A stretch of DNA of 64,000 nt from a virus, in IMG/VR virus record IMGVR_UViG_3300036766_001014, positions 16,841-80,840 of that record, one strand, 5' to 3'. This document shows positions 6,456 through 52,577 of the stretch, in pieces. A program made the translations under genes and the position numbers. Every line of letters begins with the position of its first letter. Position 1 is the stretch's first letter. The notes under the pieces are model-generated. The model was not told the DNA's origin. It ran no database searches and worked only from the letters and a program-made list of their open reading frames with translations.

Positions 6456-7181
6456 ATGACCTCGGTTCGCACAGAGTCTGACGCGGTTGCCTGCCTGTCG
6501 GCCCTTGGGGTCGCGCTGGGCGCGTTGAACGTGGAGACCGCGGCCGATGGCGGCTCGGTGGTTGTCGAGTCGTTTTCATGCGGCCGCTGCGGCGGCGCCG
6601 GGCACCTTGGGCGCGGGCTTTACGATGTCCCCTGGGGCATCTGCTATCGGTGCGGCAACGGCCCCAAGTGCCGTGGCATCAGCCGCACGCCCCTGATCGA
6701 GTACGCTCGCAAGGCCAAGGCAACCGCCGCTCGGCGCGCGAGCGTGGCAGCCAAGCGGGAAGCCAAGGCCAATGCCCGCGTCGAACGTCGCCTCGAAGGC
6801 GAGCGAACCTGGTGTGAGGCCAACGGGTACGGTCGGGTGACCTTTGCTGAGCGCGACGCCAAGCGGGCCGCTGAGCGAGCTGCCGCGGACGCCAACAGGG
6901 GCCACGTGGGCGTGGTGGGCGAACGCTCGATGTTCACGGCCACTATCAAGGCCATCCCGAGCTGGGACGGCGCCTATGGCAGGACCTACCTGGTCATCAT
7001 GGAGGATGCCGCCGGTAACTCCCTGGTCTGGAAGACGTCCAGCCCTGGCGAGGCCGAAGTCGGCGCGACGCTGACATTCAAAGCGACCGTCAAGGAACAC
7101 GGCGACTACAAGGGCGTCGCCAGGACCATGGTTACTCGGGTCAAGCCCGAGGCCGCCGTCACGGAAAGGATTGCTGCCTAA
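6456..7181 (+). CDS. Zinc finger and OB-like domain protein
   Basis: The 241-residue product starts at ATG 6456, after the Shine-Dalgarno. Residues around 41-70 hold CGRCGGAG and CYRCGNG, a DnaJ-like double-CxxC zinc finger. A long Ala/Arg/Glu-rich helix follows (about 85-150). The C-terminal 80 residues look beta-rich (YGRTYLVIMEDAAGNSLVW, ending GVARTMVTRVK), like small OB-type domains found in phage single-strand-binding or zinc proteins. A nucleic-acid-binding role is inferred. It overlaps the next start (TAATG). Confidence 0.6.
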   Translation: MTSVRTESDAVACLSALGVALGALNVETAADGGSVVVESFSCGRCGGAGHLGRGLYDVPWGICYRCGNGPKCRGISRTPLIEYARKAKATAARRASVAAKREAKANARVERRLEGERTWCEANGYGRVTFAERDAKRAAERAAADANRGHVGVVGERSMFTATIKAIPSWDGAYGRTYLVIMEDAAGNSLVWKTSSPGEAEVGATLTFKATVKEHGDYKGVARTMVTRVKPEAAVTERIAA

Positions 7182-7942: not shown

Positions 7943-9280
7943 ATGAAGCACGTCCTACCGATTTCAACGAGTTACGTGTCGTCCTGGGGGATCTGGGAAG
8001 CCGTCCGAGAGCTGATTCAGAATGCAGCCGACGAGGCTCAGGAGCGGCCCGAGCATGTGATGACCGTCGAGCACGTGGACGGCTGGCTCCACATCGCGAA
8101 CAAGGGCGCTGACCTCGGCATCCAGGCGCTGCTGATCGGCGGCTCCGACAAGGCTGGCAAGCGCGGCCTGCGCGGCCAGCACGGTGAGGGCCTGGATCTG
8201 GCGCTGCTGTGTGCCGCGCGCGCCGGTGTCGAGGTCCGAGTCTCGACCAAGACCGATGTCTGGACGCCGTGCGCTGAGTACGCCGAGCAGTACGGCGCGC
8301 GATGCCTGGTGGTCAACACGCGCAAGCACGTCAAACCGCGCGATGGCGTCAAAATCTCGATACACATCGACAAGGACTCATGGGAGTCGATGCGGTCGAA
8401 GTTCTTGTTCCTCGACCCGCCCAAGGAGCAGATCGAGTCGGACAGCGGAACGCTGATCCTCGACGCCAACCGCAAGGGCATGATCTACGTCAAGGGCATC
8501 TACGTGATGACCGGACACAACACCTCCTTCGGCTTCGACCTGCGCGACGTCACGCTGGACCGCGACAGGCGCGTGATCGGCAGCTTCGACCTCCAGTGGG
8601 CATGCTCGCGGATCATCCAGAACGCGCTCTCGCGCAACCCGGACACTTACACCGAGCCGGTGATGAATCTGCTCGAACAGGGCTCGGACGACGTTCGGTT
8701 CCTGCATAGCCACCTGGAGACGGGCGGCGAAGCGCGCAAGAGCCTCGCCAAGGCGTTCCGAGCCAGGCATGGCGAGGACGCGATGGCCGTGCAGTCGCTT
8801 GCCGAGAGCCAGCAGCTGGCGCACTTCGGCGTGAAGGGCGTCGTGGTCAACGAGGCAACGGCCAACGTGCTGGCCTCGGAGTTGGGGAGCTACAGCGATG
8901 CCGCGGCCAGGTTGCGGCAGCGTCCGACCGCGCTCTACGGATGGGACGATTTGACCGACGCCGAGAAGGCCGTCTACGAGGACGGCGTGAGGCGCATGGC
9001 GCCGGTGGCTGGCGAACACATGGCCGAGGCGTGCAAGCTCAAGGTTTGCGACTTCGCCGACAAGTCGATCGAGGGCACGTGCGACCTGGCTACCAGCGAG
9101 ATCCATGTATCTCGTCGCTGCATGGGCAACGTATTCGACCTGGTCGAGGTCATGGTGCACGAGCTGGCTCATGCCGTGAGCAGCGCTAACGACGGGACCG
9201 TGGGTCACATCCGGGCCATCGAGCGCATCTGGCGCAAGCTCTACGAGCACGCTTCCGCGCCAAAGACTGAGCCGGGGTGA
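7943..9280 (+). CDS. GHKL (HSP90-like) ATPase fused to an HExxH metalloprotease-like domain
   Basis: The 445-residue product starts at ATG 7943; further upstream the frame runs through the tail of the previous gene. The N-terminal domain has the GHKL ATPase boxes: ELIQNAADEA (23-32, the Asn box that holds Mg-ATP) and GLRGQHGEGLDL (76-87, the glycine-rich ATP lid). The C-terminal 45 residues carry HELAH (406-410) with another His 12 residues later, a zinc-metalloprotease pattern as in gluzincins and SprT-like proteins. GHKL proteins use ATP-driven dimer closure. Joined to a zincin this would be an ATP-gated protease or a decoy. The fusion is unusual. It is flanked by early genes, so an early host-takeover or anti-defence role is inferred. 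Confidence 0.75.
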   Translation: MKHVLPISTSYVSSWGIWEAVRELIQNAADEAQERPEHVMTVEHVDGWLHIANKGADLGIQALLIGGSDKAGKRGLRGQHGEGLDLALLCAARAGVEVRVSTKTDVWTPCAEYAEQYGARCLVVNTRKHVKPRDGVKISIHIDKDSWESMRSKFLFLDPPKEQIESDSGTLILDANRKGMIYVKGIYVMTGHNTSFGFDLRDVTLDRDRRVIGSFDLQWACSRIIQNALSRNPDTYTEPVMNLLEQGSDDVRFLHSHLETGGEARKSLAKAFRARHGEDAMAVQSLAESQQLAHFGVKGVVVNEATANVLASELGSYSDAAARLRQRPTALYGWDDLTDAEKAVYEDGVRRMAPVAGEHMAEACKLKVCDFADKSIEGTCDLATSEIHVSRRCMGNVFDLVEVMVHELAHAVSSANDGTVGHIRAIERIWRKLYEHASAPKTEPG

Positions 9281-9297
9281 GGCGCGTTGACGGTCTC

Positions 9298-9332
9298 TTG
9301 ACAAACCGAAAACAACACACCATATTGCGTGT
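9298..9332 (+). promoter_or_regulatory. Promoter, TTGACAAAC family, leaderless
   Basis: The -35 is TTGACA (9298-9303), the spacer is 17 nt, and the -10 is CATATT (9321-9326). The ATG at 9336 follows only 9 nt after the -10. An imperfect dyad, ACAC (9317-9320) with GTGT (9329-9332), flanks the -10. Confidence 0.7.
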
Positions 9333-9335
9333 CGT

Positions 9336-9761
9336 ATGAAACAGCCGCTCTACAAGGCCATCGCAGTCACGCTCCAGGCGCTCGTCAACTGTCGCGCGTC
9401 CGGCAACGCCGAGTGGGCCGAGCGCTGGCTCGATCGGCTCAAGCAGTTTGACAGCATGCTGCCGTCGGGCAGCGGCTTCGACAGCGGCTCGGTCATCCTG
9501 AAGACCGTGTCGTCGGCTCGCGAAATACTGATCGAGACCTCGTTCCATCACATGGACGAAAACGGCTCCTACGACGGCTGGACCGAGCACAGCGTGAAGG
9601 TGCGGGCGGACTTGGCGTGCGGCTTCGTGATCGAAGTCGGCGGACGCGACCGCAACGACATCAAGGACTACATCGCGGACACATTCCACGAGGCGTTGTC
9701 GGCCGAGGTCGGCGAAGACGACGAAGTCGCCGAAAGCGCAGATCAACATTATCGCGTGTAG
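9336..9761 (+). CDS. Hypothetical protein, predicted leaderless mRNA
   Basis: The 141-residue product starts at ATG 9336, about where transcription should begin, and has no ribosome-binding site. The N-terminal half is helical and the centre beta-rich (ILIETSFHHMDENGSYDGWTE). The acidic tail is probably flexible. The family is unknown. Confidence 0.6.
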   Translation: MKQPLYKAIAVTLQALVNCRASGNAEWAERWLDRLKQFDSMLPSGSGFDSGSVILKTVSSAREILIETSFHHMDENGSYDGWTEHSVKVRADLACGFVIEVGGRDRNDIKDYIADTFHEALSAEVGEDDEVAESADQHYRV

Positions 9762-9791
9762 CTCGAACCAACCAACAGAAGGAGAAGCAGC

Positions 9792-10751
9792 ATGGCTCAC
9801 GAAATTGAAAACATGTTCTCGGTTTCCGAGGTCCCCTGGCACGGCCTCGGGACGATCCTCGAAGACCCGCCCACGGTCGAGGACGCCATCCGGCTCGCGG
9901 GGCTCGACTGGAAGGTTGAGTGCCGACCGGTCTACGCCAAGCTCGACGGCCAGGAGATCGAAACCGATCACGTGGCCACGATCCGCGACAGCGACAAGAG
10001 CGTGCTCGGGGTGGTGGGCAAGAACTACAAGCCGCTTCAGAACGCGGACGCCTTCAAGTTCTTTCAGCCCTTTCTCGACAGCAAGGAAGCGGTGCTCGAT
10101 ACGGCTGGCAGCCTGCGCGATGGCAAGCGCGTCTGGGTGCTCGCCCGGCTCGCGCGTGACCCCGTGGAGGTTGTGCCAGGCGACGCAATCCGCAAGTACG
10201 TGCTGCTGAGCAACGGTCATGACGGCTCGCTCGCGGTGCGGGTCGGGTTCAGCGGGATCCGGGTCGTGTGTGCAAACACGATGGCCATGGCTCACGATGA
10301 CGCGGGCTCGAAGCTCCTGAGCATCCGGCACACCAAGCACGTCAACGACGCGCTCGACAAGGTGCGCGAGGCAATGGTCATGGCGGACCAGTCGTTCGAG
10401 GCCACCATCGACCAGCTCAAGGCGATGGCCCGCAAGGGCGTCGAGGTCGCCGACCTGAAGGCCCTGGTCACGGAGGTCTTCCGGCCCAAGGCGACGCTCA
10501 AGAACGCCGACGAGGAGGCAGCCGACTGCGAGCGGCTGATGGGCAAGATCATCCCCCTGTTCGAGCACGGCCGCGGCAACGACATGCCCGGTGTCGCCGG
10601 GACCGCCTATGGCGCCTACAACGCGGTTGTTGAATTCCTACAATACTACCGCGGAAAAGACGATGGCGGCCGACTGGACTCGCTGTGGTTCGGCGATTCC
10701 GCCAGGCTCAACCAGAGGGCCTTTCAGGCTGCCATTAGGATGAGCGCGTAA
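9792..10751 (+). CDS. DUF932 phage/plasmid-like protein
   Basis: The 319-residue product starts at ATG 9792 behind AGAAGGAGAAGC. The N-terminus (PWHGLGTILEDPPTVEDAI, then WKVECRPVYA), the VVGKNYKPLQNADAF segment, and SNGHDGSLAVRVGFSGIRVVCANT are typical of the DUF932/TIGR03299 family found in phages and plasmids. The length matches the family. The biochemical role is not established; the family often sits near recombination or plasmid-maintenance genes. Here it follows the GHKL/HExxH gene and one small gene. Confidence 0.85.
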   Translation: MAHEIENMFSVSEVPWHGLGTILEDPPTVEDAIRLAGLDWKVECRPVYAKLDGQEIETDHVATIRDSDKSVLGVVGKNYKPLQNADAFKFFQPFLDSKEAVLDTAGSLRDGKRVWVLARLARDPVEVVPGDAIRKYVLLSNGHDGSLAVRVGFSGIRVVCANTMAMAHDDAGSKLLSIRHTKHVNDALDKVREAMVMADQSFEATIDQLKAMARKGVEVADLKALVTEVFRPKATLKNADEEAADCERLMGKIIPLFEHGRGNDMPGVAGTAYGAYNAVVEFLQYYRGKDDGGRLDSLWFGDSARLNQRAFQAAIRMSA

Positions 10752-12543: not shown

Positions 12544-12553
12544 AAGAAACGGG

Positions 12554-12626
12554 CGCGGTCGGGCGGAGTTGAACCGCCGCTTGCTGGATCATTACTCCAG
12601 CCGTGCTGCCATAACACTTCGACCAC
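12554..12626 (-). tRNA. tRNA, anticodon read as AAT (Ile)
   Basis: The minus-strand cloverleaf has acceptor GTGGTCG/CGACCGC (one G-T), D arm GTGT-TATGGCA-GCAC, anticodon stem CTGGA/TCCAG with loop GTAATGA, and T arm GGCGG-TTCAACT-CCGCC. U33 is present and the anticodon reads AAT, which would decode Ile if A34 becomes inosine and is rare in bacteria. The 3' end is followed by CCC rather than CCA. It is first in the tRNA transcript. Confidence 0.7.
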
Positions 12627-12720
12627 AAACGGTAAGCGGACCACGCTGGGCCTTGCGGCGCGGGGTCTTTGGCGGGCGCCTTCCCGGCGCAACGGTCAAT
12701 GGCTTACGAGCATGAGCCAC

Positions 12721-15410: not shown

Positions 15411-16148
15411 ATGAGCATTTCAGCACAGCTCGACTCAGCCGTTTCACCGAACTCCGTCCTAGAGTCGAGCCTTGGCCGTATTTGGCAGCACCATGGCAAG
15501 ACCGGGTTCGCGATCCTCACGGCCTGGCTCGGTCATCGTCCGGGGGTGACGGATGCCGCCGAGCTGCGCGCCATGAACAAGAAGGCGATGGCCGAACTGC
15601 GCTCCGACATCAAGGCGGGCGGGTTTGGTTTCGTGCCCGTCGAAGGTGTCGGCCAAGAGGAGCGAGACGGCAAGATCGTCGAGGCGCCGGAACCGAGCTT
15701 CCTCGTGCCGAACAGCAAATCTTCCAAGTCCGGCAAAGCAGGCTTGCCAGCCGAACGTGACGAGCTGCGCAAGCTCGTGATGCGCCTCGGCAAGAAGTAC
15801 GGTCAGACGGCTGTGCTGGTCCACGACCCGGAGACGGGTTCTGAGATCGTCGCTCCGGACGGCGAGGTCCTCGACAAGTACAAGTCGTTCGGTCCGAACA
15901 CGGTCGCCAAGTTTTTTACCAGACTGAGCAAGGGCCGCGATGGTCGCGTGGATCGCCATGGCAACAAGGGCTTGGACCGCAAGGGCCGCACGTTTACGCT
16001 GGAGTCGCTGGTGTGGTGGGGACTGCGCTACGGCGACCCGCCTGGCGGCTGGCTCGAAGGCATGGCCCAGGACAGCCAGGGCCGAGTCAGGATCGCTGAG
16101 TGCAGCGATCGCGTCGAGGACTGGCTGGCCAAGATGGGGATTGCGTGA
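15411..16148 (+). CDS. Hypothetical protein of about 245 residues
   Basis: ATG 15411 follows AAGGAGC. The N-terminal part (SSLGRIWQHHGKTGFAILTAWLGHR) and the segment MNKKAMAELRSDIKAGGFGF resemble phage proteins of unknown function. The centre (KKYGQTAVLVHDPETGSEIV) is alpha/beta. It is coupled to the next gene by GTGA. Confidence 0.6.
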   Translation: MSISAQLDSAVSPNSVLESSLGRIWQHHGKTGFAILTAWLGHRPGVTDAAELRAMNKKAMAELRSDIKAGGFGFVPVEGVGQEERDGKIVEAPEPSFLVPNSKSSKSGKAGLPAERDELRKLVMRLGKKYGQTAVLVHDPETGSEIVAPDGEVLDKYKSFGPNTVAKFFTRLSKGRDGRVDRHGNKGLDRKGRTFTLESLVWWGLRYGDPPGGWLEGMAQDSQGRVRIAECSDRVEDWLAKMGIA

Positions 16149-17167: not shown

Positions 17168-17421
17168 CGACTCTACGCGACCGGGCGCCGCGATGTCGAG
17201 AAGTCGGCCAGCGGCCTCATTGCCAGCAATCAGTCAAGCATTCGACAACCGTCGCGCACTTCTCGCTTGCAGGTCGCGCCGGGGAGTCTGTATAGCTCTC
17301 CGTTCACGCTTCCGGGCGGGAGCGCGCGTGACCAGTCCCGCGTGATCGAGAGCAGCAACTCTCAATCACGCAGTAGGGGGCGGCGCGCGCCCTGACTGGA
17401 AGCCACGGGACTGCAATCTCT
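17168..17421. other. Non-coding stretch between divergent genes
   Basis: These 254 bases separate the minus-strand receiver-like gene from the Rep gene. No convincing TTGACAAAC promoter was found. It holds the large hairpin at 17340-17371 described as part of the origin-like element. Confidence 0.5.
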
Positions 17422-17480
17422 GTGGCGGAACTCGATCTACGTCAAAATGACGCGGCACGCAACGTAGCGTCACGCAACGT
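17340..17480. repeat. Hairpin plus direct repeats, candidate Rep origin
   Basis: A 13-nt arm, GCGTGATCGAGAG (17340-17352), pairs at 12 of 13 positions with 17359-17371 around a 6-nt loop. Further on are CGTCA-AAA-TGACG (17440-17452) and two copies of CACGCAACGT (17456-17465 and 17471-17480). Such a hairpin with iterated sites directly at an HUH Rep gene is typical of rolling-circle origins. That it is an origin is inference. Confidence 0.4.
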
Positions 17481-18732
17481 CACAAGCGATGCCGTGCGCC
17501 GCGCGCGCCAGCGCACCGGCCGCGCCGCCCTCGACGGAATCGCCAACCCAAAGCGCCGTCCGCGGCTGCCCCTAGATCAAGAAGTAAAGAACAACACAAC
17601 AGACCGGGATGATTCAAGAATCCAGTGGTCCATTTTCGGACCAGTTCCCTTCGGAGGTTCATGGCTCTACCGAAGACGTCTATGGGAACGGTTGAGAGAT
17701 GAGGCCGCCGAATTGCCCAAGCCGATGAGGTCAGCGATGTACAAGAGAGCCGAGACAATGCGTACCTGCGGATCGACAGTGGATGTTCGCCAGTGCGGAG
17801 ACTGCGATATGGCCAGAAGCGGATCGGGCCGCTTTACCAAGACCTGCAAGAGCCGGTCATGTCCCGTGTGTTCGCAGACCAGGTCCTCGAACATCGCGGA
17901 CTTCCTTGAGCATGCCTACGACGAGGTCCCCGCCAGGGACGGCTACCGGTGGCAGTTCGTGGTGCTCACCACCAAGTACGATCCATCGGACACCGTTGAC
18001 GTCGAGCCCGCCGCCCTCCGATCGCGTGCCCTGCTTGCCGCCAAGCTCGCCCGCGTGGCCTGGAAAGCGCTCGGCGTACCCGGCGCCGCGATGCTTCGGA
18101 CGACCGAGGTCAGCGCCAGGGGAATGGTCCATGCCAACCTCGTGTACTACGGGCCGCTGATCGATGACCCGGCCGCCCGCGTCACCAAGTTCGAGCTGGA
18201 CGCCGAGCTGGCGGCAGTCGATTGCCGGGCAGGCCGGTGCAACGTCCAGATCCTCGACTCCGATCCGGTCATGGGACAGCCGGGTAAGCGCGTGAAGTCG
18301 GACGATCCACGTGGCTCGAAGTCGGCTGTGAAGCGCGCCGCGAGGTACGCCGCCAAGGGCGTTGCCGCCAAGCGTGCTGGCAAGACGACGTACGGTCCGA
18401 CCGCGCCCGGCGAAGGCTGGCTCGGAGAGCAGGAAATGGCCGTCGTCATCGATCCGCGCCTGGCCGCCCGTTGGGAGATCGCGGCCTACCGCCTCCAGCT
18501 CACGCAGCGGTACGGCGCACTACGCAAGCTCGACCTCGTCGAAGACGCGCAGCCGCTGCCCGAGGATGATGCGGAGACGCCGTGCGGCGGTTGCGGCGTC
18601 GTTGGCCATTGGAAGTGGGCGCGCTGCGATACGGAGGCGTGGGTCAGGACGAACCACGAGCGCGGACACGCGGCCCTACAGGGATCGACCTGGGCGCCGC
18701 GAGCGCGATCGTGCCTAGAAGGAGACGGATGA
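17422..18732 (+). CDS. HUH-type replication initiator (Rep) protein
   Basis: The product has 436 residues from GTG 17422. A zinc cluster occupies 116-150 (CGSTVDVRQCGDC, then TCKSRSCPVC). WQFVVLTTKYDP (177-188) fits Rep motif 1. GMVHANLVYYG (234-244) is the HUH motif with Asn in place of the second His. ARYAAKGVAAK (307-317) fits the tyrosine motif 3 (YxxK). Such proteins nick one strand to start rolling-circle replication of plasmids. A second Cys cluster near the C-terminus (CGGCGVVGHWKW) could bind DNA. It is unusual in a T4-like phage, and plasmid ancestry is likely. Confidence 0.65.
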   Translation: MAELDLRQNDAARNVASRNVTSDAVRRARQRTGRAALDGIANPKRRPRLPLDQEVKNNTTDRDDSRIQWSIFGPVPFGGSWLYRRRLWERLRDEAAELPKPMRSAMYKRAETMRTCGSTVDVRQCGDCDMARSGSGRFTKTCKSRSCPVCSQTRSSNIADFLEHAYDEVPARDGYRWQFVVLTTKYDPSDTVDVEPAALRSRALLAAKLARVAWKALGVPGAAMLRTTEVSARGMVHANLVYYGPLIDDPAARVTKFELDAELAAVDCRAGRCNVQILDSDPVMGQPGKRVKSDDPRGSKSAVKRAARYAAKGVAAKRAGKTTYGPTAPGEGWLGEQEMAVVIDPRLAARWEIAAYRLQLTQRYGALRKLDLVEDAQPLPEDDAETPCGGCGVVGHWKWARCDTEAWVRTNHERGHAALQGSTWAPRARSCLEGDG

Positions 18733-18746
18733 TGTAGGCTTGGTGA

Positions 18747-19601
18747 ATGTCGAAGCGGATCAGCAAGTTTGTCATCAAGGGAACCGAAAAGGTCCGCGAG
18801 GGCACGTACAAATTCGACGTCGATTTGGGCAAGACCTCGATCAGAGTCATCGTCTACCCAAACAAAAGAATGCAGGTGCTTGGCAACGATTCTGTGCAGT
18901 GGCTTCAGTCGGATCTGACGGATGCCCAGCAACAGAAGCTGCTCGCCTTGGTGGCGAAAGCGGAGCGCGTGGTGAAAGAAGAATCGTTGGTTGTGGAAGA
19001 AAGCCTGCCGGAGGACCCCTGGAGGTACTTCGTCAAGACGCCGGGCGCGCTCCTCGTGCCGATCTGCATCGGCAATCAAGATCGCCCGCTGTGCCTGCAC
19101 AATATCCGTGCTCGCCCCAAGGGGATCATGAACGCGGCCAAGTACATGCGCCTCGCGTACGAGGGCAAGAACAAGAAGCGAAAACCGATCAGTCTACGCC
19201 TAAGCCGCGACGGCGAGTTCTCGATCGTCGATGGCAACAGCACGTTTGCGATCGCTGTCGCCAACGGCTGGAAGCATATCCCGGCCGAGGTGGATAGTTC
19301 CGCGCTCATAGGGCTGGCGAAGGAGAACCGCGAGAGCATGGCCGCGACGCTGGAGCACGCGGCGTTCAACGCATGCCCAGCCTGCGGCACCAGGCTCACG
19401 GAGATGTCCGCCCGTGAACTTAGGCAGAAGCTGCGCAAGGAGGGCTGCATCGAGCTGCGACAAAAGGGCAGCCACCTGCAAGTGCAGTGCGGAAAGTGCC
19501 AGTCCACGATTCCGATGCACAAGGGTCGCGACATCAAGCGCGGGACACTGGGCGCGATCGAGCGGTCGTTGGAAGTCTGCCTCGGCGACGACTTCCTCTA
19601 A
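18747..19601 (+). CDS. ParB/Srx-like domain fused to a HicA-like domain
   Basis: The product has 284 residues. After a beta-rich N-terminus, residues 130-185 (DGNSTFAIAVANGWKHIPAEV) match the ParB/sulfiredoxin-like fold. Residues 221-277 match HicA: SARELRQKLRKEGCIELRQKG, SHLQV, then a TIPMH strand with its conserved His; GSH at 241-243 holds the catalytic-type His of HicA mRNA interferases. Two CxxC pairs (210/213 and 248/251) flank this domain. No HicB antitoxin follows. It could be an RNA-binding or RNA-cleaving effector. Confidence 0.6.
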   Translation: MSKRISKFVIKGTEKVREGTYKFDVDLGKTSIRVIVYPNKRMQVLGNDSVQWLQSDLTDAQQQKLLALVAKAERVVKEESLVVEESLPEDPWRYFVKTPGALLVPICIGNQDRPLCLHNIRARPKGIMNAAKYMRLAYEGKNKKRKPISLRLSRDGEFSIVDGNSTFAIAVANGWKHIPAEVDSSALIGLAKENRESMAATLEHAAFNACPACGTRLTEMSARELRQKLRKEGCIELRQKGSHLQVQCGKCQSTIPMHKGRDIKRGTLGAIERSLEVCLGDDFL

Positions 19602-23228: not shown

Positions 23229-25265
23229 ATGACCGATTTTCACCACAAGTTGCTCTCTGGGTTGAATCCCGAGCAACGCGAAGTCGTGCTCCACGACAAG
23301 GGGCCGTTATTGGTGGTCGCCGTCGCCGGGGCAGGCAAGACTCACGCCCTGGTCAACCGGTGCGGCTACCTAGTGCGCGTGCGCGGGGCTGACCCGTCGC
23401 GCATCTTGGCGGTCACATTCTCCAAGGCGGGGGCCTCGGAGATGCAAGAGCGACTCGAATCGCTAATCGGCTCGTCCGGCGCGCGCATCGGCACGTTCCA
23501 TTCGCTCGGACTGGAGATCGTCTTCTCTGAGCGGCCCGAGATGAAAAGCTGGAAGATCGACGACTCCGACCGTTACCGGCTCTGCCTCAAGGACGCTGTC
23601 GGCTACAAGGAGATGGACTGGAAGGACCACGACATCACCATGCTCAGCTCGTTCGTCGGCCTGTGCAAGGCGAACCTGGCGCGGCCCGAGAGCGACGTGG
23701 CCAAGGCCATCGCCGAGGACATCTACAGGCGCGTGCGAAAGCCTTGCGCGCATCCAGGCATGAGCCTGCGGGCGTACGCGCGCGCGGAGGAGCTGCGTCG
23801 GGAACGGCTGCTGCTGACCTTCGACGACATGCTCGTCGAGTCGGTCGAGCTGCTGCGTGATAACGACGCCGTGCGCTCGCGCTGGGCCAGCCGGTACGAC
23901 TACGTGCTCCAAGACGAGGCGCAAGATCAAAACCTGGCGCAGCTCCTGATGGGCGAGCTGCTGGCCCAAGACCACAAGAACTACATGCTGGTCGGCGATC
24001 CAGCGCAATGCATTTACACCTGGCGCGGGGCCAAGCCGGAAAAGCTGCTGAACTTCGAGTCCGCCTGGGGCGCCAAGGTGGTGCGGATGGGTCGCAACTA
24101 TCGCTGCGGACAATCGATCATCGACGTGGCGAACGCCTCACTCGACTCGATGGACCCGACCACCAAGCTCGATATCAGGATGATTGCGGAGCGTCGCGAG
24201 GCGGGTAGCGATGACGTGGTCGAAGGCGAGGTGACCTGTCGTCAGTACACGACCATCGACGACGAGGGCTTCGGGATTGTCGATCAAATCCAAGCGCTGG
24301 TCGAAGACGGCCGCAAGCCCAAGGACTTCGTGGTGCTCTATCGCGTGAACGCGCAATCGAGGTCGCCCGAGGAGGCGCTGATCACGGCGCGCATTCCATA
24401 CCGTGTCATCGGCGGCGTGAGCTTCTACGAACGTAAGGAGGTCAAGAACCTCCTGGCTTACCTGCGACTGGCCAACGGCGGTGGCACTCTCGACGACGTC
24501 GGACGCTGCATCAACACGCCCTTCCGATATCTCGGCAAGGCATTCGTGGACAAGGTTCGCGAGGAGGCCGAGAAGCGCGCCGCGATGACCGGCCCAATCA
24601 ACTGGTCCGATGTCGTTCGCGTTGTCGCGGATCGCGCAGGCATGCAAAGTCGGCAACGGCAAAGCGCGCTCGGTTGGGCCGACATCCTCGATCGCATGCA
24701 CGCGCGGATCGCAAAGGGTGTGACCGCGACGCCTGGAACGCCCGCCTATGAGGAGTCGCTGCCCGCGGCCATCCTTGAACGAATCGTTCTCGAAACTAGG
24801 TACTCCGAGGCGCTGCTCAAAGAGGAGGGCGAGGAGAGCACCGAGAACAGCCGTGTGAGCAACGTGCGCGAGATGATTCGAGCGGCTGGCCGATTCAACT
24901 CGGCCGCCGACCTGCTCGACTACGTGGATGTCACCATCAAGGCCAGCAAGGCCAACTCGAAGGACAAGGACCCAAACCAAGTCACGCTGTGCACGCTGCA
25001 CCGCGCCAAGGGCCTGGAGTGGCCCGTCGTGTTCCTGGCTGGCGTCTCGGACCTCATCTTGCCGCACGGCAAGGCTGAGGAGCCCGAGGAGGAGCGTCGG
25101 CTCTACTACGTCGGCGTGACGCGCGCGCGCGACATCCTGCACGTGAGCTGCGTGAGAACCATCGCCTTCGGGAGCAAGCTCCGCGAAGTGGCCCCGAGCC
25201 CGTTCTTGGCCGAGTCCGGGTTGACCCCGGTTCCGGTGGGCGGAAAGGCCGCGATGGCAAGCTAG
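23229..25265 (+). CDS. UvrD/PcrA-like superfamily 1A DNA helicase
   Basis: The product has 678 residues from ATG 23229 and all SF1A motifs: Q motif GLNPEQREVV (11-20), Walker A VAVAGAGKTHAL, motif II YVLQDEAQDQN, motif III GDPAQCIYTWRGA, motif IV RNYRCGQSIIDVAN, motif V TLCTLHRAKGLEWPVVFLAG and motif VI RRLYYVGVTRARD. The enzyme moves 3' to 5' on DNA and serves repair, recombination or rolling-circle replication. The last role is notable given the HUH Rep at 17422. The length is typical. It is transcribed from its own promoter. Confidence 0.93.
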   Translation: MTDFHHKLLSGLNPEQREVVLHDKGPLLVVAVAGAGKTHALVNRCGYLVRVRGADPSRILAVTFSKAGASEMQERLESLIGSSGARIGTFHSLGLEIVFSERPEMKSWKIDDSDRYRLCLKDAVGYKEMDWKDHDITMLSSFVGLCKANLARPESDVAKAIAEDIYRRVRKPCAHPGMSLRAYARAEELRRERLLLTFDDMLVESVELLRDNDAVRSRWASRYDYVLQDEAQDQNLAQLLMGELLAQDHKNYMLVGDPAQCIYTWRGAKPEKLLNFESAWGAKVVRMGRNYRCGQSIIDVANASLDSMDPTTKLDIRMIAERREAGSDDVVEGEVTCRQYTTIDDEGFGIVDQIQALVEDGRKPKDFVVLYRVNAQSRSPEEALITARIPYRVIGGVSFYERKEVKNLLAYLRLANGGGTLDDVGRCINTPFRYLGKAFVDKVREEAEKRAAMTGPINWSDVVRVVADRAGMQSRQRQSALGWADILDRMHARIAKGVTATPGTPAYEESLPAAILERIVLETRYSEALLKEEGEESTENSRVSNVREMIRAAGRFNSAADLLDYVDVTIKASKANSKDKDPNQVTLCTLHRAKGLEWPVVFLAGVSDLILPHGKAEEPEEERRLYYVGVTRARDILHVSCVRTIAFGSKLREVAPSPFLAESGLTPVPVGGKAAMAS

Positions 25266-25441: not shown

Positions 25442-25732
25442 ATGCAGATCAGACCGCTCGGAGATCGCGTGCTCGTGTCCAGGATCGAAGCTGAGTCGGT
25501 GACGACTGGCGGCCTCCTGGTGCCAGACAACGCCAAGGAGAAGAAGGATCGGGCGACTGTGATCGCCGTCGGCGACGGCCGCGTGATGGACGACGGCGCG
25601 GTGATACCGCTCGACGTCAGAGCCGGAGACCTGGTGCTATTCGGCAGGTACTGCGGCACCGAGGTAGAGGTGGACGGCAAGAAGCTGCTGATGATTGGCG
25701 AGGACGACGTGCTCGCGATTATCGAGCCCTGA
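25442..25732 (+). CDS. groES: GroES-type co-chaperonin
   Basis: The 96-residue product starts at ATG 25442, 3 nt after AAGGAGAAG. It shows MQIRPLGDRVLVSR, TTGGLLVPDNAKEK (the mobile loop and GG-hydrophobic motif), VIAVGDGRV, VRAGDLVLFGRYCGTEV and a DDVLAIIE end. It caps GroEL to fold proteins; phages carry their own version to fold large capsid proteins (T4 gp31 is a functional analogue). A second GroES-like gene lies at 35486. Confidence 0.9.
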   Translation: MQIRPLGDRVLVSRIEAESVTTGGLLVPDNAKEKKDRATVIAVGDGRVMDDGAVIPLDVRAGDLVLFGRYCGTEVEVDGKKLLMIGEDDVLAIIEP

Positions 25733-32300: not shown

Positions 32301-34916
32301 GTGGACATTGATGCGGCAATCCTTTGGTGCGCGACGCGAGACGACAGCGCGTTGAAGATGGCCAAGTCGCTCGGCGTAACCGATCGGCTGCTGAACGGTA
32401 ACGCCAAGGCGGCTTGGAAGTTCATCGGCGAGTACCAGGAAAAGTACGGCACGATCCCAAGCGTCGGACTCATCGTCGAGAACAGCGGCTGCGTCGTGAA
32501 GCCGCCGGACAGCGAGGAGGATCGCGTCGAGCTGCGATACGTTGTCGATCAGCTCTATGATCGCTTTCAGTTCAAGTCGCTCAACTACGGCCTCGGCAAG
32601 TCGAGCGAGGCGCTTGAGAACGGTAACCAGCAAGAAGCTGTAGACGAGGTCCTCAAGCTATCCGATCACCTACGCTCCGAGCGAAGGGATCAGCTTCAGA
32701 TCCACTCGCTCGGCGACGTGGCGCCGGACGTGCTCGCGATGTACGAGCGCGTAAAGCGCGGCGAGACTGGCGTGCCGTTCCCGTGGCAGACCATGACCGA
32801 CATGACTCTCGGCATGTGGCCAGGGACGCTGACGTTCTTCGTAGCTCGTCCTGGTGTCGGTAAATGCGTCCACGAAGACACCGAGATCATCGATCCGGTC
32901 ACCGGCGTGCCGACCTCGATTCGGCAGGTATACGACAGTCGCGGCTTTGCTCGCGTGGCGAGCTGGTCGAAGGAGCGTGGCGTCCACGCCGTGCCGATCT
33001 CGGCCAAGGTGGACACCGGGAGAAAGGAATGCCTGCGGGTCACGTTTCGCACAGGGCGAACGATCACGGTCACGCCAGAGCATCCATTCCTGTCGCCAGA
33101 AGGTTGGCTACGAGCCGACGCGATCAAAGTCGGAATGACCATGGCCTTGCCCGCCAGGATGCCAACGCCGGAGCAGCCCGTGTCGCTGAGTCCGCTCGAA
33201 GTGGATCTGCTCGCCGTGCTTCTCTCGGAAGGCAGCTATACCGGACACCACACCGGGTTCACCACGTCCGACGCGAGCATCCTTGAGATCGCGCGCGCGG
33301 CGGGCGAGTGGGCGGGTGCGCCGGTGAAGCATCGCAGTCGCTACGACTACGACTTTGTGCGTCCAGCTCAGTCTGCCGAACCGAACGCGGTCAGAGAGAT
33401 TCTGCGCCGTCACGGGATCGCCGGAACGCTTGCCAAGCACAAGGTTTTGCCGGAGGCGATCTGGCGATTGCCGCTTGAACAGCTGTCTCGTTTCTTGTCT
33501 GTGTTCTGGATGTGCGACGGGTACGTGGACGCGGCTCCAGGGGTCACGCTTGCATCTGAGAGGCTCGTTCGGCAGATCCAGTCGCTGCTGCTGCGTCTCG
33601 GTGTCCAGTCATCTGTCGGAGAAAGGACAGCAAAAATCGGAGAGGCTTCGTATCCGGCGTGGAGGCTGCGTGTTCACGCGGAGTGCTTCGAGGCGTTCGC
33701 GGCCGGGACGTCGCTCTGGGGAGACAAGAAGGACAGGCTCGACGCGCTTCTGACCATGGAGCGTAACCCAAACATCGGCTTTCCGAGGGTTAGCGACGAG
33801 ACGATTGAGGCGTTGCGGCGAGTCTCCGACTCAGGGACTGGCCGATGGCAGGGCGGCAAGCATGAGATGGTGGCCGCGGCGCTTGACAGGGTTCAGTTTC
33901 AGTTCCGAGACATGTTCGGAGCCAGCAACAGCATCAAGAAGACGGCTTTCGTTGGCTTCGCAGAGGTGTACGGGATCGCCGATCAGTATGCATGGTGGTG
34001 GAACTCCGACATCTTCTGGGACGAAGTGGTGACGATCGACTCGGTGGGCGAGCAGAAGATTTACGATCTCACGATCGCCGACACACACTGCTTCGTGGCC
34101 AACGATGTCATCGTTCACAACACTTGGACAGCGGTCATCATGGCCATGCACGTCTGGCAGGTGGCCAAGCTCAAGGTGCTAATCGTGTCGCCTGAGCTTG
34201 GCCGAGTTGAACTTGGCGAGCGGTGCGTGGCCAAGTACGGAGGGTTTTCGTACAAGGACATGGTCAGCGCCGAGTTGGGCGTGTTCGCCGAGCCCAAGTT
34301 CTACCAAGTGATCGAGGAGTTGAAGACCAACGGCGATGGCCTCTACATCCTCGACGATGAGGATCGGTTGCAGCCCGACTACATCGAGCAAGCGGTGGAG
34401 GCGGTTCGGCCGGACCTCGTGATCATCGACAGCCTCTACATGCTGCGCGTCGAGCGCGGCAAGGTGAAGTCGGGCGCTGGCAGCAAAGGCGACCGCATGG
34501 AGCGCGTGGTCGAGACCATCAACTGGATGCGCGGATTGTCACGCAAGAAGCGCTCGTTCGCCCCGGAGGGATTGCCGGTGGTTGGCATCCACCAGCTCTC
34601 GCGAGACGGCAAGGTGCGCTCCGACGCCGCGAAGTCCATCAAGTCCGGGCGTGGCACCGGCGGCCTGGAGGACACCGTAGCCCTGTCGGACGCCCTGTTC
34701 TGGAACGCGCACAACCTGTTCGCGATGTACCAGGACCAGTACATGATGCAAGATCATCAGCTCATGTACGTTCCGCTCAAAGCGCGCCGTCAGACGAAGG
34801 TGTCGAGCCTCGTGATCAACTGGGACTTGGTCACAATGGACTTCAAGGAGTTGGGCACGAAGGTTGGCGATCAGACCGCGGCGTATCAGGATGAGGAGAT
34901 GGAGGTTCCGTACTGA
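32301..34916 (+). CDS. DnaB-type replicative helicase containing an intein
   Basis: The precursor has 871 residues from GTG 32301; without the intein it is about 452 residues. The host part has a DnaB/gp41-like N-terminus and an RecA-type core: ARPGVGK joined after splicing to TWTAV (Walker A), PDLVIIDSLYML (Walker B), VVGIHQLSRD and SDALFWNAHN. It unwinds DNA 5' to 3' at the fork as a hexamer. The intein splits the P-loop between Lys and Thr, so splicing is required for activity. It follows its loader and precedes primase and SSB genes. Confidence 0.92.
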   Translation: MDIDAAILWCATRDDSALKMAKSLGVTDRLLNGNAKAAWKFIGEYQEKYGTIPSVGLIVENSGCVVKPPDSEEDRVELRYVVDQLYDRFQFKSLNYGLGKSSEALENGNQQEAVDEVLKLSDHLRSERRDQLQIHSLGDVAPDVLAMYERVKRGETGVPFPWQTMTDMTLGMWPGTLTFFVARPGVGKCVHEDTEIIDPVTGVPTSIRQVYDSRGFARVASWSKERGVHAVPISAKVDTGRKECLRVTFRTGRTITVTPEHPFLSPEGWLRADAIKVGMTMALPARMPTPEQPVSLSPLEVDLLAVLLSEGSYTGHHTGFTTSDASILEIARAAGEWAGAPVKHRSRYDYDFVRPAQSAEPNAVREILRRHGIAGTLAKHKVLPEAIWRLPLEQLSRFLSVFWMCDGYVDAAPGVTLASERLVRQIQSLLLRLGVQSSVGERTAKIGEASYPAWRLRVHAECFEAFAAGTSLWGDKKDRLDALLTMERNPNIGFPRVSDETIEALRRVSDSGTGRWQGGKHEMVAAALDRVQFQFRDMFGASNSIKKTAFVGFAEVYGIADQYAWWWNSDIFWDEVVTIDSVGEQKIYDLTIADTHCFVANDVIVHNTWTAVIMAMHVWQVAKLKVLIVSPELGRVELGERCVAKYGGFSYKDMVSAELGVFAEPKFYQVIEELKTNGDGLYILDDEDRLQPDYIEQAVEAVRPDLVIIDSLYMLRVERGKVKSGAGSKGDRMERVVETINWMRGLSRKKRSFAPEGLPVVGIHQLSRDGKVRSDAAKSIKSGRGTGGLEDTVALSDALFWNAHNLFAMYQDQYMMQDHQLMYVPLKARRQTKVSSLVINWDLVTMDFKELGTKVGDQTAAYQDEEMEVPY
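32865..34121 (+). mobile_element. Intein in the DnaB-type helicase, LAGLIDADG endonuclease
   Basis: The 419-residue intein starts at Cys 189 of the precursor (CVHEDTEIIDPVTG) and ends FVANDVIVHN before Thr+1. Block B is TVTPEHPFLSPEGW with its TxxH. Two LAGLIDADG-type motifs, LLAVLLSEGS and FLSVFWMCDGYVD, define the homing endonuclease in the same frame. Both junction residues (Cys 1, His-Asn end, Thr+1) are competent for splicing. Insertion lies in the Walker A lysine-threonine bond. Confidence 0.93.
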
Positions 34917-49655: not shown

Positions 49656-52577
49656 GTGGCTAAACGACGACCGATCGCAGAAGGCTTCGTCTCCGGGGTC
49701 AGCAATTCGATCCGGCAGTTCTTTGCCCGATCTGAGATCGCGCAGGCGTCGGAAATTCAGCGCGGCGGTTCGCCGAGCGTCGAGCGGGCGGGGTTGCCGT
49801 TCAACCTGGTCAACCAGTTCGGATATGACTCGCTCGCTGAGCACCTGCGCATCGACCAAGACCTCCAAGCTCGGTACACCGACTACGAGGAAATGGACGA
49901 ATATCCCGAGATTTCCTGTATTTCCGGACACTTACGGCTACCGAACCTGACTGTATCCGGAAACATAGAGGAGATGGTGAAGGGGAAGACCGTCGCCGTC
50001 AAGGACTTGTGCGAAGCCGTGGAGTCGGGGCGCGTGCAGAGGTTCTTCGTCTACGCGATCGACCACGCCGCTGGCCGCGTGGTGGCGGCTGAGGCTAAGG
50101 GCATCAGGCGCACGGGCGAGAAGGTCCCGGTTGTACGGGTTGTCTACGAGGACTACCGCCGCAGTGGGCAGTGGGAGCTGGTGGTGACCGCCAGTCATCT
50201 CTGCATGCTGCGCGACGGCTCCTACCGGGCCGCAGGCGATCTCAGGCCCGGCGATCGGATGATGCCCTGCACATTCCGGCTGGAAAAGCCTGGGTACTTG
50301 TCGATCTACGAGCCGTTGAGGAAGACGTCCGGCGGGAAGGCGGTCTACCAAACTGCGCATGCGCTCGTGATGCGTGCCATGGTCGGCAGTCCGCTGTCCG
50401 CGGACGAAGTCGCGCACCACAAGGACGAGGACAAGGCCAACCCGCATCCCATGAACCTCGAACTGAGGGGCAAGGGCGAGCATGCGGCCGGGCATGTCGC
50501 TGGTCCCGGCGACGCCAAGCGTCGCAAGGCCATCCGGCAGACGGTTGCCGGGAAATGGAAGGACCCGAGCTTCAAGCTCCAAGTGGCCAAGGCGCACCAG
50601 GGCTCGCCGAAGTGGCTACAGCGCGAAGCTGACGGGGAGCACAAGCATCGCGAAGCCACCGGCACTATGTCCGACGCCCACCGGCAAGCGATCTCCGATG
50701 GACGCACGATCGATCTGTCGCCGTCCGTGGTCGAGGCCGCCGTCAGATCGTCGGCGTCGTTCAACGATGCAGCGCGCAAGGTCGGCGTGTCGTGGAACAC
50801 GCTCATGCGCCGCATGGATCAGTTTGGTTTCGACCGAGGCATGCTCGGATCATTGCTTGGCGGTCCCGTAGAGGGGCAAGCCAGCTACGCCAACCATCGC
50901 GTCGTGTCAGTGGAACCGGCAGGCGTAGAGGATGTCTACGACATCGAGGTTCCGGGGTACCACAACTTCGCGGTGGGCGACGAGAACGGCGAAGGCATGG
51001 TCTTCGTCCACAACTCGGCTTACGACATTTACGCCGACGACTCTGCGATGCCCAATGAGAAGGGCCAGTCGATCTGGATCAGCTCCGACAACCGTGCCAT
51101 CGAGTCCGACCTGATGGAGATGTTGCACAAGCGCATCCGCATCGAGGACGACATCTGGGGCTTGGAGCGCACGATCGGCAAGTACGGCAACGCCTTCGGC
51201 GAGCTGCTTGTCGGCAAGGAGGGGCTGGTCGGGATCAACTTTCTGCCGCCGCCCACGGTCCGCCGTGTCGAAGGCCCACAGGGGCAGCTGATCGGCTTCA
51301 TCCAGGACATCCGAGGCGAGTTCAACGTCGGCCTGGAGGATTTCTACAAGCTTGCGGCCGAGCGCGGAGCGGACGGAGAGCGCCGTCGCCCGCCTGGCGA
51401 GCTGACGGTGTTCGAGGACTGGGAGGTCGTGCACTGGCGCCTCCGAGGCAAGCATCTGCGCTCGGTGTACGGCCATGGCGTGGCGGATGGCGCGCGTTGG
51501 ATCTGGAAGCGCTTGTCGCTGCTCGAAGACGCGCTGCTGATCTACAAGCTCTCGCGCGCGCCCGCGCGCTACGCCTTCTACGTAGACATCGGCGAGTACG
51601 ATCACGAGCGCGGCCTGGCCTACGTGAACAGGGTCAAGAACCAGTTCGTGAAGCAAAAATTCGTCAACCCGAACACGGGCAAGATGGACATGCGGCACAG
51701 TCCTTTAAGTCATGACGAAGATTTCTTCATCCCATCGCGTGGTGGCAAGGACTCAACACGCATCGAGATGCTCCAGGGTCCGGATTACGCCGAGACCGAC
51801 ACGGTCGAGTACCATCGCGACAAGCTGGTGAGCGCAATCAAGGTGCCGAAGGCGTACCTCGGCTATGGCGGCGAGGCATCCAAGTCGTCGCTGTCGTCCG
51901 AAGATATTCGGTTCGCGAGAACGGTGATGCGCGTTCAGCGCGAGACCCGCACCGGCGTTCGCAAGGCGTGCCGCGTTCACCTCGTGGCCAAGGGGGCCGA
52001 TGTGGATCGCTACGAGTACGACGCGGTCATGTCCGTGCCGTCGGCCATCCTGGAGCTGGCCCGACTGGAGGTCTTGTCAGCCACGGCTGATCTTGCTCAG
52101 CGGACCGGCGAGATTCTGTCCACGAAGTGGGTGCTCACGACCTTGTTCAAGTATTCCGAGGAGGAAGCCGAGAGGTTGATCCTCGAAAAGGACGGCGACG
52201 CCCTGCGCAAGGCCAAGGTTGAGGCCGAGTCTCAGCGGTTGTTGGCTCTTGCCCAGCAAGCGGCCCAGCCACCAGAAGAAGGTGGCGGCGAGGCCCCCGA
52301 GGCGGGCGCCGAGCCGGAGCCGGAAGCCGCCCCAGAGTCGATCGGCCGACGCGGTCTCCGGCGCGCTGACCAGATCATGCTGGAGCGCAGACTCGGCGAC
52401 ATGATCAAGCGACAGGGCGACGACACCCGCAGGTCGCTGGAGCGGAAAATGGATTCTCGTTGGCGGGCCGAGGACAAGATCGCCGAGGCCGTGAGGGATC
52501 CCAAGATAGCCAACCGTCTGCGGCGCATCGAAGGTCTGCTTGGCGACGTGCGCGCTGCGATGCGTCCTGTCGAATAG
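49656..52577 (+). CDS. Portal protein containing an intein
   Basis: The precursor has 973 residues from GTG 49656; the spliced form is about 607. The host part reads MDEYPEIS joined to SAYDIYADDS, the conserved portal N-terminal motif (PEIxxAxDIYADE), then RIRIEDDIWGLERTIGKYGN, FEDWEVVHWRLRG, VADGARWIWKRL and HRDKLVSAIKVPKAYLGYGG, all typical of T4-like portals. The C-terminus is coiled. It forms the 12-fold ring at the packaging vertex. Confidence 0.9.
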   Translation: MAKRRPIAEGFVSGVSNSIRQFFARSEIAQASEIQRGGSPSVERAGLPFNLVNQFGYDSLAEHLRIDQDLQARYTDYEEMDEYPEISCISGHLRLPNLTVSGNIEEMVKGKTVAVKDLCEAVESGRVQRFFVYAIDHAAGRVVAAEAKGIRRTGEKVPVVRVVYEDYRRSGQWELVVTASHLCMLRDGSYRAAGDLRPGDRMMPCTFRLEKPGYLSIYEPLRKTSGGKAVYQTAHALVMRAMVGSPLSADEVAHHKDEDKANPHPMNLELRGKGEHAAGHVAGPGDAKRRKAIRQTVAGKWKDPSFKLQVAKAHQGSPKWLQREADGEHKHREATGTMSDAHRQAISDGRTIDLSPSVVEAAVRSSASFNDAARKVGVSWNTLMRRMDQFGFDRGMLGSLLGGPVEGQASYANHRVVSVEPAGVEDVYDIEVPGYHNFAVGDENGEGMVFVHNSAYDIYADDSAMPNEKGQSIWISSDNRAIESDLMEMLHKRIRIEDDIWGLERTIGKYGNAFGELLVGKEGLVGINFLPPPTVRRVEGPQGQLIGFIQDIRGEFNVGLEDFYKLAAERGADGERRRPPGELTVFEDWEVVHWRLRGKHLRSVYGHGVADGARWIWKRLSLLEDALLIYKLSRAPARYAFYVDIGEYDHERGLAYVNRVKNQFVKQKFVNPNTGKMDMRHSPLSHDEDFFIPSRGGKDSTRIEMLQGPDYAETDTVEYHRDKLVSAIKVPKAYLGYGGEASKSSLSSEDIRFARTVMRVQRETRTGVRKACRVHLVAKGADVDRYEYDAVMSVPSAILELARLEVLSATADLAQRTGEILSTKWVLTTLFKYSEEEAERLILEKDGDALRKAKVEAESQRLLALAQQAAQPPEEGGGEAPEAGAEPEPEAAPESIGRRGLRRADQIMLERRLGDMIKRQGDDTRRSLERKMDSRWRAEDKIAEAVRDPKIANRLRRIEGLLGDVRAAMRPVE
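49917..51014 (+). mobile_element. Intein in the portal protein, HNH endonuclease
   Basis: The 366-residue intein starts at Cys 88 (CISGHLRLPNLTVSG) and ends GMVFVHN before Ser+1. Block B is VVTASHLCMLRDGSY (TxxH). The insert has an HNH motif, VAHHKDEDKANPHPMNLEL plus a later His, and a NUMOD-like HTH (VEAAVRSSASFNDAARKVGVS). Block F is VEDVYDIEVPGYHNFAVG. All splicing residues are present. The insertion splits the conserved PEIS-SAYDIYADD motif. Confidence 0.92.

What the first reader, a model, noticed from the sequence alone, without database searches (positions are those of the whole stretch)
17340..18732. Rolling-circle type Rep with an adjacent hairpin and iterated sites in a T4-like phage
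The 436-residue protein has zinc cluster, motif 1 (VVLTTKYDP), an HUH-type motif with Asn (VHANLVYYG) and a tyrosine motif 3 (RYAAKGVAAK). Just upstream and within its first codons lie a 12/13-bp hairpin, an inverted repeat and two direct CACGCAACGT repeats. A UvrD-like helicase, the usual partner in rolling-circle replication, is encoded at 23229. The phage may have captured a plasmid replicon or may use a phage-plasmid stage.
Basis: partly seen in the sequence, partly recalled or inferred. Interest (0 to 1): 0.62.

Follow-up and report, generated by a model that had tools for sequence, protein, structure and literature searches.

The report
Altered plasmid replication protein in phage
A large bacterial virus carries one gene descended from the proteins that small plasmids use to copy themselves in a 'rolling circle', but two of its key catalytic residues are changed and the usual start site is absent, so it has probably been put to another use rather than giving the virus a plasmid lifestyle.

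Summary
The ORF at 17422-18732 (436 aa) is real and is a very diverged rolling-circle initiator related to the Rep_1 (pC194/pUB110) family. A profile of 12 relatives scores residues 86-186 (zinc cluster and motif 1) at 43.5 bits; the best of 2000 shuffles scores 3.4. The catalytic half matches only in motif order and spacing. Two family catalytic positions are changed: the HUH motif reads H-A-N (12/12 relatives H-x-H), and the glutamate at Tyr-4 (pC194 Glu210, used for termination) is Arg305 (12/12 Glu). Tyr309 and Glu229 (pC194 Tyr214, Glu142) are kept. The family nick site CTTGATA, found 68-275 bp upstream of rep in 14/17 relatives, is absent. The hairpin and repeats exist, but neither exceeds chance for the genome. 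No partition or integrase family was found among the predicted genes scanned. The UvrD-like helicase also occurs in 78 phage records where no relative of this Rep was found. So 'captured Rep gene' is supported; 'captured replicon or phage-plasmid' is not. Listeria phage LIS04, with a related head, carries an independent Rep_1 gene that has lost nearly all catalytic residues. Best guess: a single captured gene co-opted as an origin-binding protein or one-way nickase, perhaps against rolling-circle competitors. Function is inferred.

The parts
17422..18732 (+). rep-like gene, 436 aa, GTG start
   Evidence: ORF; Pfam Zn_Tnp_IS91 4.8e-5 and Rep_1 1.4e-4, both below curated cut-offs; 43.5 bits to a profile of 12 Rep_1 relatives
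17767..17871 (+). zinc cluster, residues 116-150 (C116, C142, C147, C150 invariant in the alignment)
17956..17973 (+). motif 1, FVVLTT (residues 179-184), 37 residues after the Cys motif as in 11 of 12 relatives
18097..18111 (+). R226-x-x-E229-V; E229 aligns with pC194 Glu142
   Evidence: role from PMC5703833
18130..18138 (+). motif 2, H237-A-N239 in place of H-x-H
   Evidence: 12 of 12 relatives have H-x-H
18334..18336 (+). R305, in place of the catalytic Glu at Tyr-4 (pC194 Glu210)
   Evidence: 12 of 12 relatives have E; role from PMC5703833
18346..18357 (+). motif 3, Y309-A-A-K312 (aligns with pC194 Tyr214)
17340..17371 (.). hairpin upstream of rep, 12/13 pairs, loop CAGCAA; no CTTGATA nick site in it
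17456..17480 (+). two CACGCAACGT repeats, inside the first codons
17168..17421 (.). divergent intergenic region where an origin would be expected; no family nick site
18747..19601 (+). next gene, 14 bp after rep: C-terminal HicA-like domain (residues 223-274)
   Evidence: Pfam HicA_toxin 8.6e-10
23229..25265 (+). UvrD/PcrA-like helicase, not specific to this Rep

Best explanation
The gene is a single, strongly diverged Rep_1-type rolling-circle initiator, captured by a T4-type-head phage that has its own DnaB helicase, primase and UvsX. It is not a complete plasmid replicon. Most likely it has been co-opted as an origin-recognising DNA-binding protein: the zinc domain and HUH-type core recognise an origin-like site (inferred), and Tyr309 with Glu229 and His237 may still make a one-way nick (inferred), but with Arg305 for the termination glutamate and Asn239 for a metal-binding histidine it should not run the full initiate-and-terminate cycle (inferred from pC194). 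The likeliest use is interference with rolling-circle competitors such as plasmids, filamentous phages or satellites. Shown: homology of residues 86-186, motif order, the two substitutions, absence of the family nick site and of plasmid-maintenance families in the genes scanned. Not shown: binding, nicking, target or benefit.
For: Profile homology 43.5 bits against 3.4 for the best of 2000 shuffles. Motif order R..E[VI][ST]-H.[HNQ]-[KR]Y..K in 0 of 200,000 shuffles of the C-terminal half (pattern chosen after seeing the sequence). HxN and R at Tyr-4 against HxH and E in 12 of 12 relatives; in pC194 RepA Tyr214, Glu142 and Glu210 are essential and conserved in the family (PMC5703833). Family nick site upstream of rep in 14 of 17 relatives, absent here. 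Own DnaB, primase, UvsX. Only RCR initiators bear a name among the 50 best fold matches in BFVD (ranks 9, 27, 32: two Microvirus initiators and a Vibrio phage replication protein). Lytic Listeria phage LIS04 (head 27.7% identical over 96%) carries an independent Rep_1 ORF without recognisable motif-1 threonines, Glu142, first His or Tyr, so altered Rep_1 genes do persist in such phages. Precedent: phage ICP1 Odn borrows a satellite's RepA DNA-binding domain to attack its origin (PMC8263062). Satellites with Rep_1-like genes exist.
Against: No target site or target replicon is known. Tyr309 and Glu229 are kept, which a pure binding decoy would not need. The catalytic half shows no profile similarity beyond shuffles, so residue matching there rests on motifs; another alignment places N239 opposite the first HUH histidine, which would remove both. 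AlphaFold models are poor (pLDDT 43 and 44) and no PDB match is significant. No close relative was found, so selection on the gene cannot be measured.
Confidence: 0.38

Rival explanations
1. One-way initiator for the phage itself: the protein nicks a site in the phage genome with Tyr309, a UvrD/PcrA-type helicase unwinds, and because the termination glutamate is missing, synthesis continues into concatemers that are useful for headful packaging.
For: Tyr309 and Glu229 kept, termination Glu lost (roles from PMC5703833). Phage-encoded UvrD/PcrA-like helicase 4.5 kb away; UvrD drives RCR of CTXphi and of some Gram-positive plasmids (PMC4439123; PMC5703833). Structured region beside the gene.
Against: The phage has its own DnaB, primase and UvsX, and UvsX suggests recombination-dependent concatemers. 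No family nick site near rep. None of 37 kin phage records reached through the head protease has this Rep (many are fragments). HUH reduced to HxN.
Confidence: 0.22
2. A captured plasmid gene without function, in decay or passing through.
For: Two catalytic substitutions; atypical codon use and lower GC at 17572-17871; no kin phage with it; origin absent.
Against: Intact 436-codon ORF; the C-terminal two thirds has the phage's own codon use and GC3, which suggests long residence; zinc cysteines, Tyr, Glu229 and spacing are kept.
Confidence: 0.22
3. A working plasmid replicon or phage-plasmid stage: Rep plus the hairpin/repeat region form an origin.
For: Rep homologue next to a hairpin and two repeats; UvrD-like helicase nearby.
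Against: No family dso; hairpin and repeats within chance; repeats lie in coding sequence; no partition or integrase family found; catalytic residues changed.
Confidence: 0.08
4. An IS91/ISCR-like rolling-circle transposase inserted in the phage.
For: Pfam Zn_Tnp_IS91 4.8e-5 and NCBIfam transpos_IS91 5.3e-4, both below cut-off and zinc domain only.
Against: One Tyr in YxxK, not the two-Tyr motif; gene ends 14 bp before its neighbour; no second copy in the record.
Confidence: 0.04
5. Assembly chimera: plasmid DNA joined to phage DNA.
For: No other record found covers the 1 kb on the right of the gene or the left side; the nearest kin starts at window 19758.
Against: Phage families on both sides (phrog_6077 and phrog_1221 at 7943-10751, UvrD and capsid to the right); C-terminal codon use matches the phage.
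Confidence: 0.03

Closest known systems
Rep_1 (PF01446) initiators of pC194/pUB110-type plasmids and of some filamentous phages
   Same: Zinc cluster, motif 1, R..EV, single Tyr with YxxK, same order, 37-residue zinc-to-motif-1 spacing
   Different: HxN for HxH, Arg for catalytic Glu at Tyr-4, no CTTGATA dso, about 20% identity, C-terminal half below profile detection
Rep of lytic Listeria phage LIS04 (WJZ23591.1)
   Same: Rep_1-derived gene in a tailed phage with a related head; catalytic residues changed; not next to other annotated plasmid genes
   Different: 251 aa, scores 107.9 bits to plasmid Rep_1, loses almost all catalytic residues; not detectably similar to the window protein, so a separate capture
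IS91-family transposases
   Same: Zinc-binding domain resemblance
   Different: No second Tyr; full-length model not met
ICP1 Odn (origin-directed nuclease)
   Same: Conceptual only: a phage protein that reuses an initiator's DNA-binding part against a competitor's origin (PMC8263062)
   Different: Odn has a RepA_N domain plus a T5orf172 nuclease; no sequence relation claimed or tested
P2-type gpA (Phage_GPA, from general knowledge)
   Same: HUH initiator in a tailed phage that replicates by rolling circle
   Different: No match to Phage_GPA in Pfam

Membership tests
Rep_1 (pC194/pUB110) initiators | Score above the curated Pfam cut-off | tested here: not met
   21.8 bits against 33.2
Rep_1 (pC194/pUB110) initiators | Sequence homology of zinc domain and motif 1 | tested here: met
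   43.5 bits, best shuffle 3.4
Rep_1 (pC194/pUB110) initiators | Sequence homology of the catalytic half | tested here: inconclusive
   Profile score not above shuffles, but motif order and spacing kept
Rep_1 (pC194/pUB110) initiators | HUH metal-binding motif | tested here: not met
   H-A-N; 12 of 12 relatives H-x-H
Rep_1 (pC194/pUB110) initiators | Catalytic Tyr with YxxK (Tyr214) | tested here: met
   Y309-A-A-K312
Rep_1 (pC194/pUB110) initiators | Metal-linked Glu (Glu142) | tested here: met
   E229 in LRTTEV
Rep_1 (pC194/pUB110) initiators | Termination Glu at Tyr-4 (Glu210) | tested here: not met
   R305; 12 of 12 relatives E
Rep_1 (pC194/pUB110) initiators | dso with CTTGATA nick site just upstream of rep | tested here: not met
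   14 of 17 relatives have it, phage does not
Rep_1 (pC194/pUB110) initiators | Site-specific nicking and joining | not testable with these tools
   needs purified protein
IS91 transposases | Two catalytic tyrosines | tested here: not met
   single Tyr in RYAAK
IS91 transposases | Zinc-binding domain above cut-off | tested here: not met
   23.7 bits against 26.3; 19.1 against 125
Phage-plasmid | Partition or plasmid-maintenance genes | tested here: inconclusive
   No Par or integrase family in the predicted genes scanned; record is a fragment
Phage-plasmid | Circular extrachromosomal prophage | not testable with these tools
   metagenome contig without end repeats

The most novel reading that the evidence does not exclude
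Large lytic phages repeatedly capture rolling-circle initiators and change their active sites, turning them into weapons that bind or irreversibly nick the origins of competing rolling-circle plasmids, filamentous phages or satellites. This phage (HxN, Glu to Arg) and Listeria phage LIS04 (active site largely lost) would be two independent cases.
Probability: 0.2. Interest if true: 0.75.

Novelty: new variant of a known kind. Interest (0 to 1): 0.45.

Why it matters
Rolling-circle initiators define how many small plasmids, filamentous phages and satellites copy themselves. Finding altered versions kept by large dsDNA phages that have their own replisome suggests a use outside replication. If the interference reading is right, it would extend the ICP1 Odn principle to HUH-type initiators and give a direct test: does the phage protein bind or cut Rep_1 origins? 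The natural HxN/Arg variant also asks which active-site residues separate initiation from termination.

Tried and rejected
Sequence searches with the whole protein in viral contigs, genome contigs and phages gave no relative, nor did the C-terminal half in phages or plasmids. Flanking genes gave no record covering the locus; the 95% kin G001 starts 1 kb downstream. A sweep of 398 Pseudomonadota genomes found only the Gluconacetobacter entanii hit already known. Profile sweeps of 385 and 398 genomes of two groups gave ordinary Rep_1 proteins, with HPHxH where I read them. An alignment that included a Y-x-x-x-Y relative was too variable to search with. Two AlphaFold runs were low-confidence; PDB fold matches are not significant. 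No Rfam family at the locus. Genome laying was not available. A TTCTTGAT on the minus strand at 17576 resembles the nick core, but the 7-mer TCTTGAT occurs 21 times in the record, so it was dropped. IS91 membership rejected on the single Tyr. UvrD as a diagnostic partner rejected.

Full report
What is there. The window is bases 16841-80840 of an 80,840-bp viral record without end repeats, so a fragment. Head genes are T4-type (portal phrog_213, protease phrog_207, major capsid phrog_138), and the phage has its own DnaB-type helicase, primase and UvsX. The hairpin, the repeats and the UvrD/PcrA-like helicase are also where it said.

Is it more than chance? The protein is. A profile of 12 Rep_1 relatives, built without the phage protein, scores it at 43.5 bits over residues 86-186, against 3.4 bits for the best of 2000 shuffles. 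Residues 187-436 do not exceed shuffles by profile, but the family's motif order R..E[VI][ST] - H.[HNQ] - [KR]Y..K occurred in 0 of 200,000 shuffles of that part (the pattern was widened to admit the phage motif, so this is a post-hoc figure). The zinc-to-motif-1 spacing of 37 residues equals that of 11 of 12 relatives. A low-confidence model (pLDDT 44) has strands and helices in HUH-like order, and the only named entries among its 50 best BFVD matches (ranks 9, 27, 32) are two Microvirus replication initiators and a Vibrio phage replication protein. PDB gave nothing significant.

The DNA features are weaker. The hairpin is the best of the record, but each of six shuffled genomes had one at least as good, and it ranks 13th of 4037 windows by folding energy. 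Close 10-bp repeats are expected a few times per genome, and these two are inside the ORF.

Catalytic residues. In pC194 RepA, Tyr214 (nucleophile), Glu142 (metal) and Glu210 (termination) are essential and conserved throughout the family (PMC5703833). The phage protein keeps the first two (Y309, E229) but has Arg305 for the third, where 12 of 12 relatives have Glu, and H-A-N for H-x-H, again 12 of 12. One other alignment would even remove both metal histidines; I prefer H237/N239 because it keeps the following hydrophobic strand and the proline in register.

Origin. As a positive control, 14 of 17 Rep_1 relatives have a CTTGATA-type nick site on the rep strand 68-275 bp upstream of the gene (two of the 17 are near-identical). 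The phage has none near the gene; the only three in the window are at 6944, 43027 and 53452, all minus strand. Three relatives, including the alpha-proteobacterial one, also lack it, so a different site cannot be excluded.

Context. No partition or integrase family was found in the predicted genes scanned. The next gene, 14 bp downstream, ends in a HicA-like domain. The UvrD-like helicase has relatives in 78 phage records, while this Rep has none in that collection. None of the phage's kin records has the Rep (many are fragments), and the nearest kin, about 95% identical, starts 1 kb to the right. Codon use is atypical at 17572-17871 and phage-like in the C-terminal two thirds, compatible with an old capture.

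A parallel. Searching phages with plasmid-type Rep_1 proteins found filamentous phages, Streptococcus satellites and one large tailed phage, Listeria phage LIS04, lytic, 181.6 kb. Its head protein is related to ours (27.7% over 96%). Its 251-aa Rep scores 107.9 bits to the family, but motif 1 reads LKLE, Glu142 is Gln, HxH is TxH and the Tyr motif is not recognisable. It is not detectably similar to our protein, so the two look like separate captures with altered active sites.

Interpretation. A single captured and diverged initiator gene is well supported. A captured replicon or phage-plasmid is not. I think co-option as an origin-binding protein or one-way nickase against rolling-circle competitors is the likeliest function, by analogy with ICP1 Odn (PMC8263062) and because satellites and filamentous phages with Rep_1 genes exist. 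This is inference: no target, binding or activity is shown. A one-way initiator for the phage's own concatemers, and plain decay, remain serious rivals.

Noticed in passing
window 49656-52577: Portal protein carries an HNH-endonuclease-like stretch at residues 207-314 ahead of the portal match at 496-840; looks like an intein or inserted homing nuclease.
   Followed up: no
window 32301-34916: DnaB-type helicase of 871 aa with PHROG matches in separate pieces (370-616 and 608-858); possible fusion or insert.
   Followed up: no
window 18747-19601: 284-aa protein with a C-terminal HicA-like toxin domain and zinc-finger-like stretch, 14 bp after rep; no HicB was recognised among the neighbours scanned.
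   Followed up: partly
window 15546-16148: Protein with weak matches to DUF3293 (4.6e-5) and S-adenosylmethionine lyase (0.0018), both below cut-off.
   Followed up: no
window 25442-25732: Phage GroES co-chaperonin (phrog_3188, 5.7e-27).
   Followed up: no
L002 and left part of the window: Among the left-half genes scanned are a peptide deformylase (1.2e-42) and a PTH2 peptidyl-tRNA hydrolase (4.5e-7); the scan does not say which gene each belongs to.
   Followed up: no
L091:5953-6705 (OQ999172.1, Listeria phage LIS04): Annotated 'protein Rep' is a Rep_1 relative with its catalytic residues largely replaced; kept by a lytic phage.
   Followed up: partly
window 12551-12627, minus strand: tRNA-Ile called with anticodon AAT beside tRNA-Phe; unusual anticodon for bacteria, not checked.
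   Followed up: no
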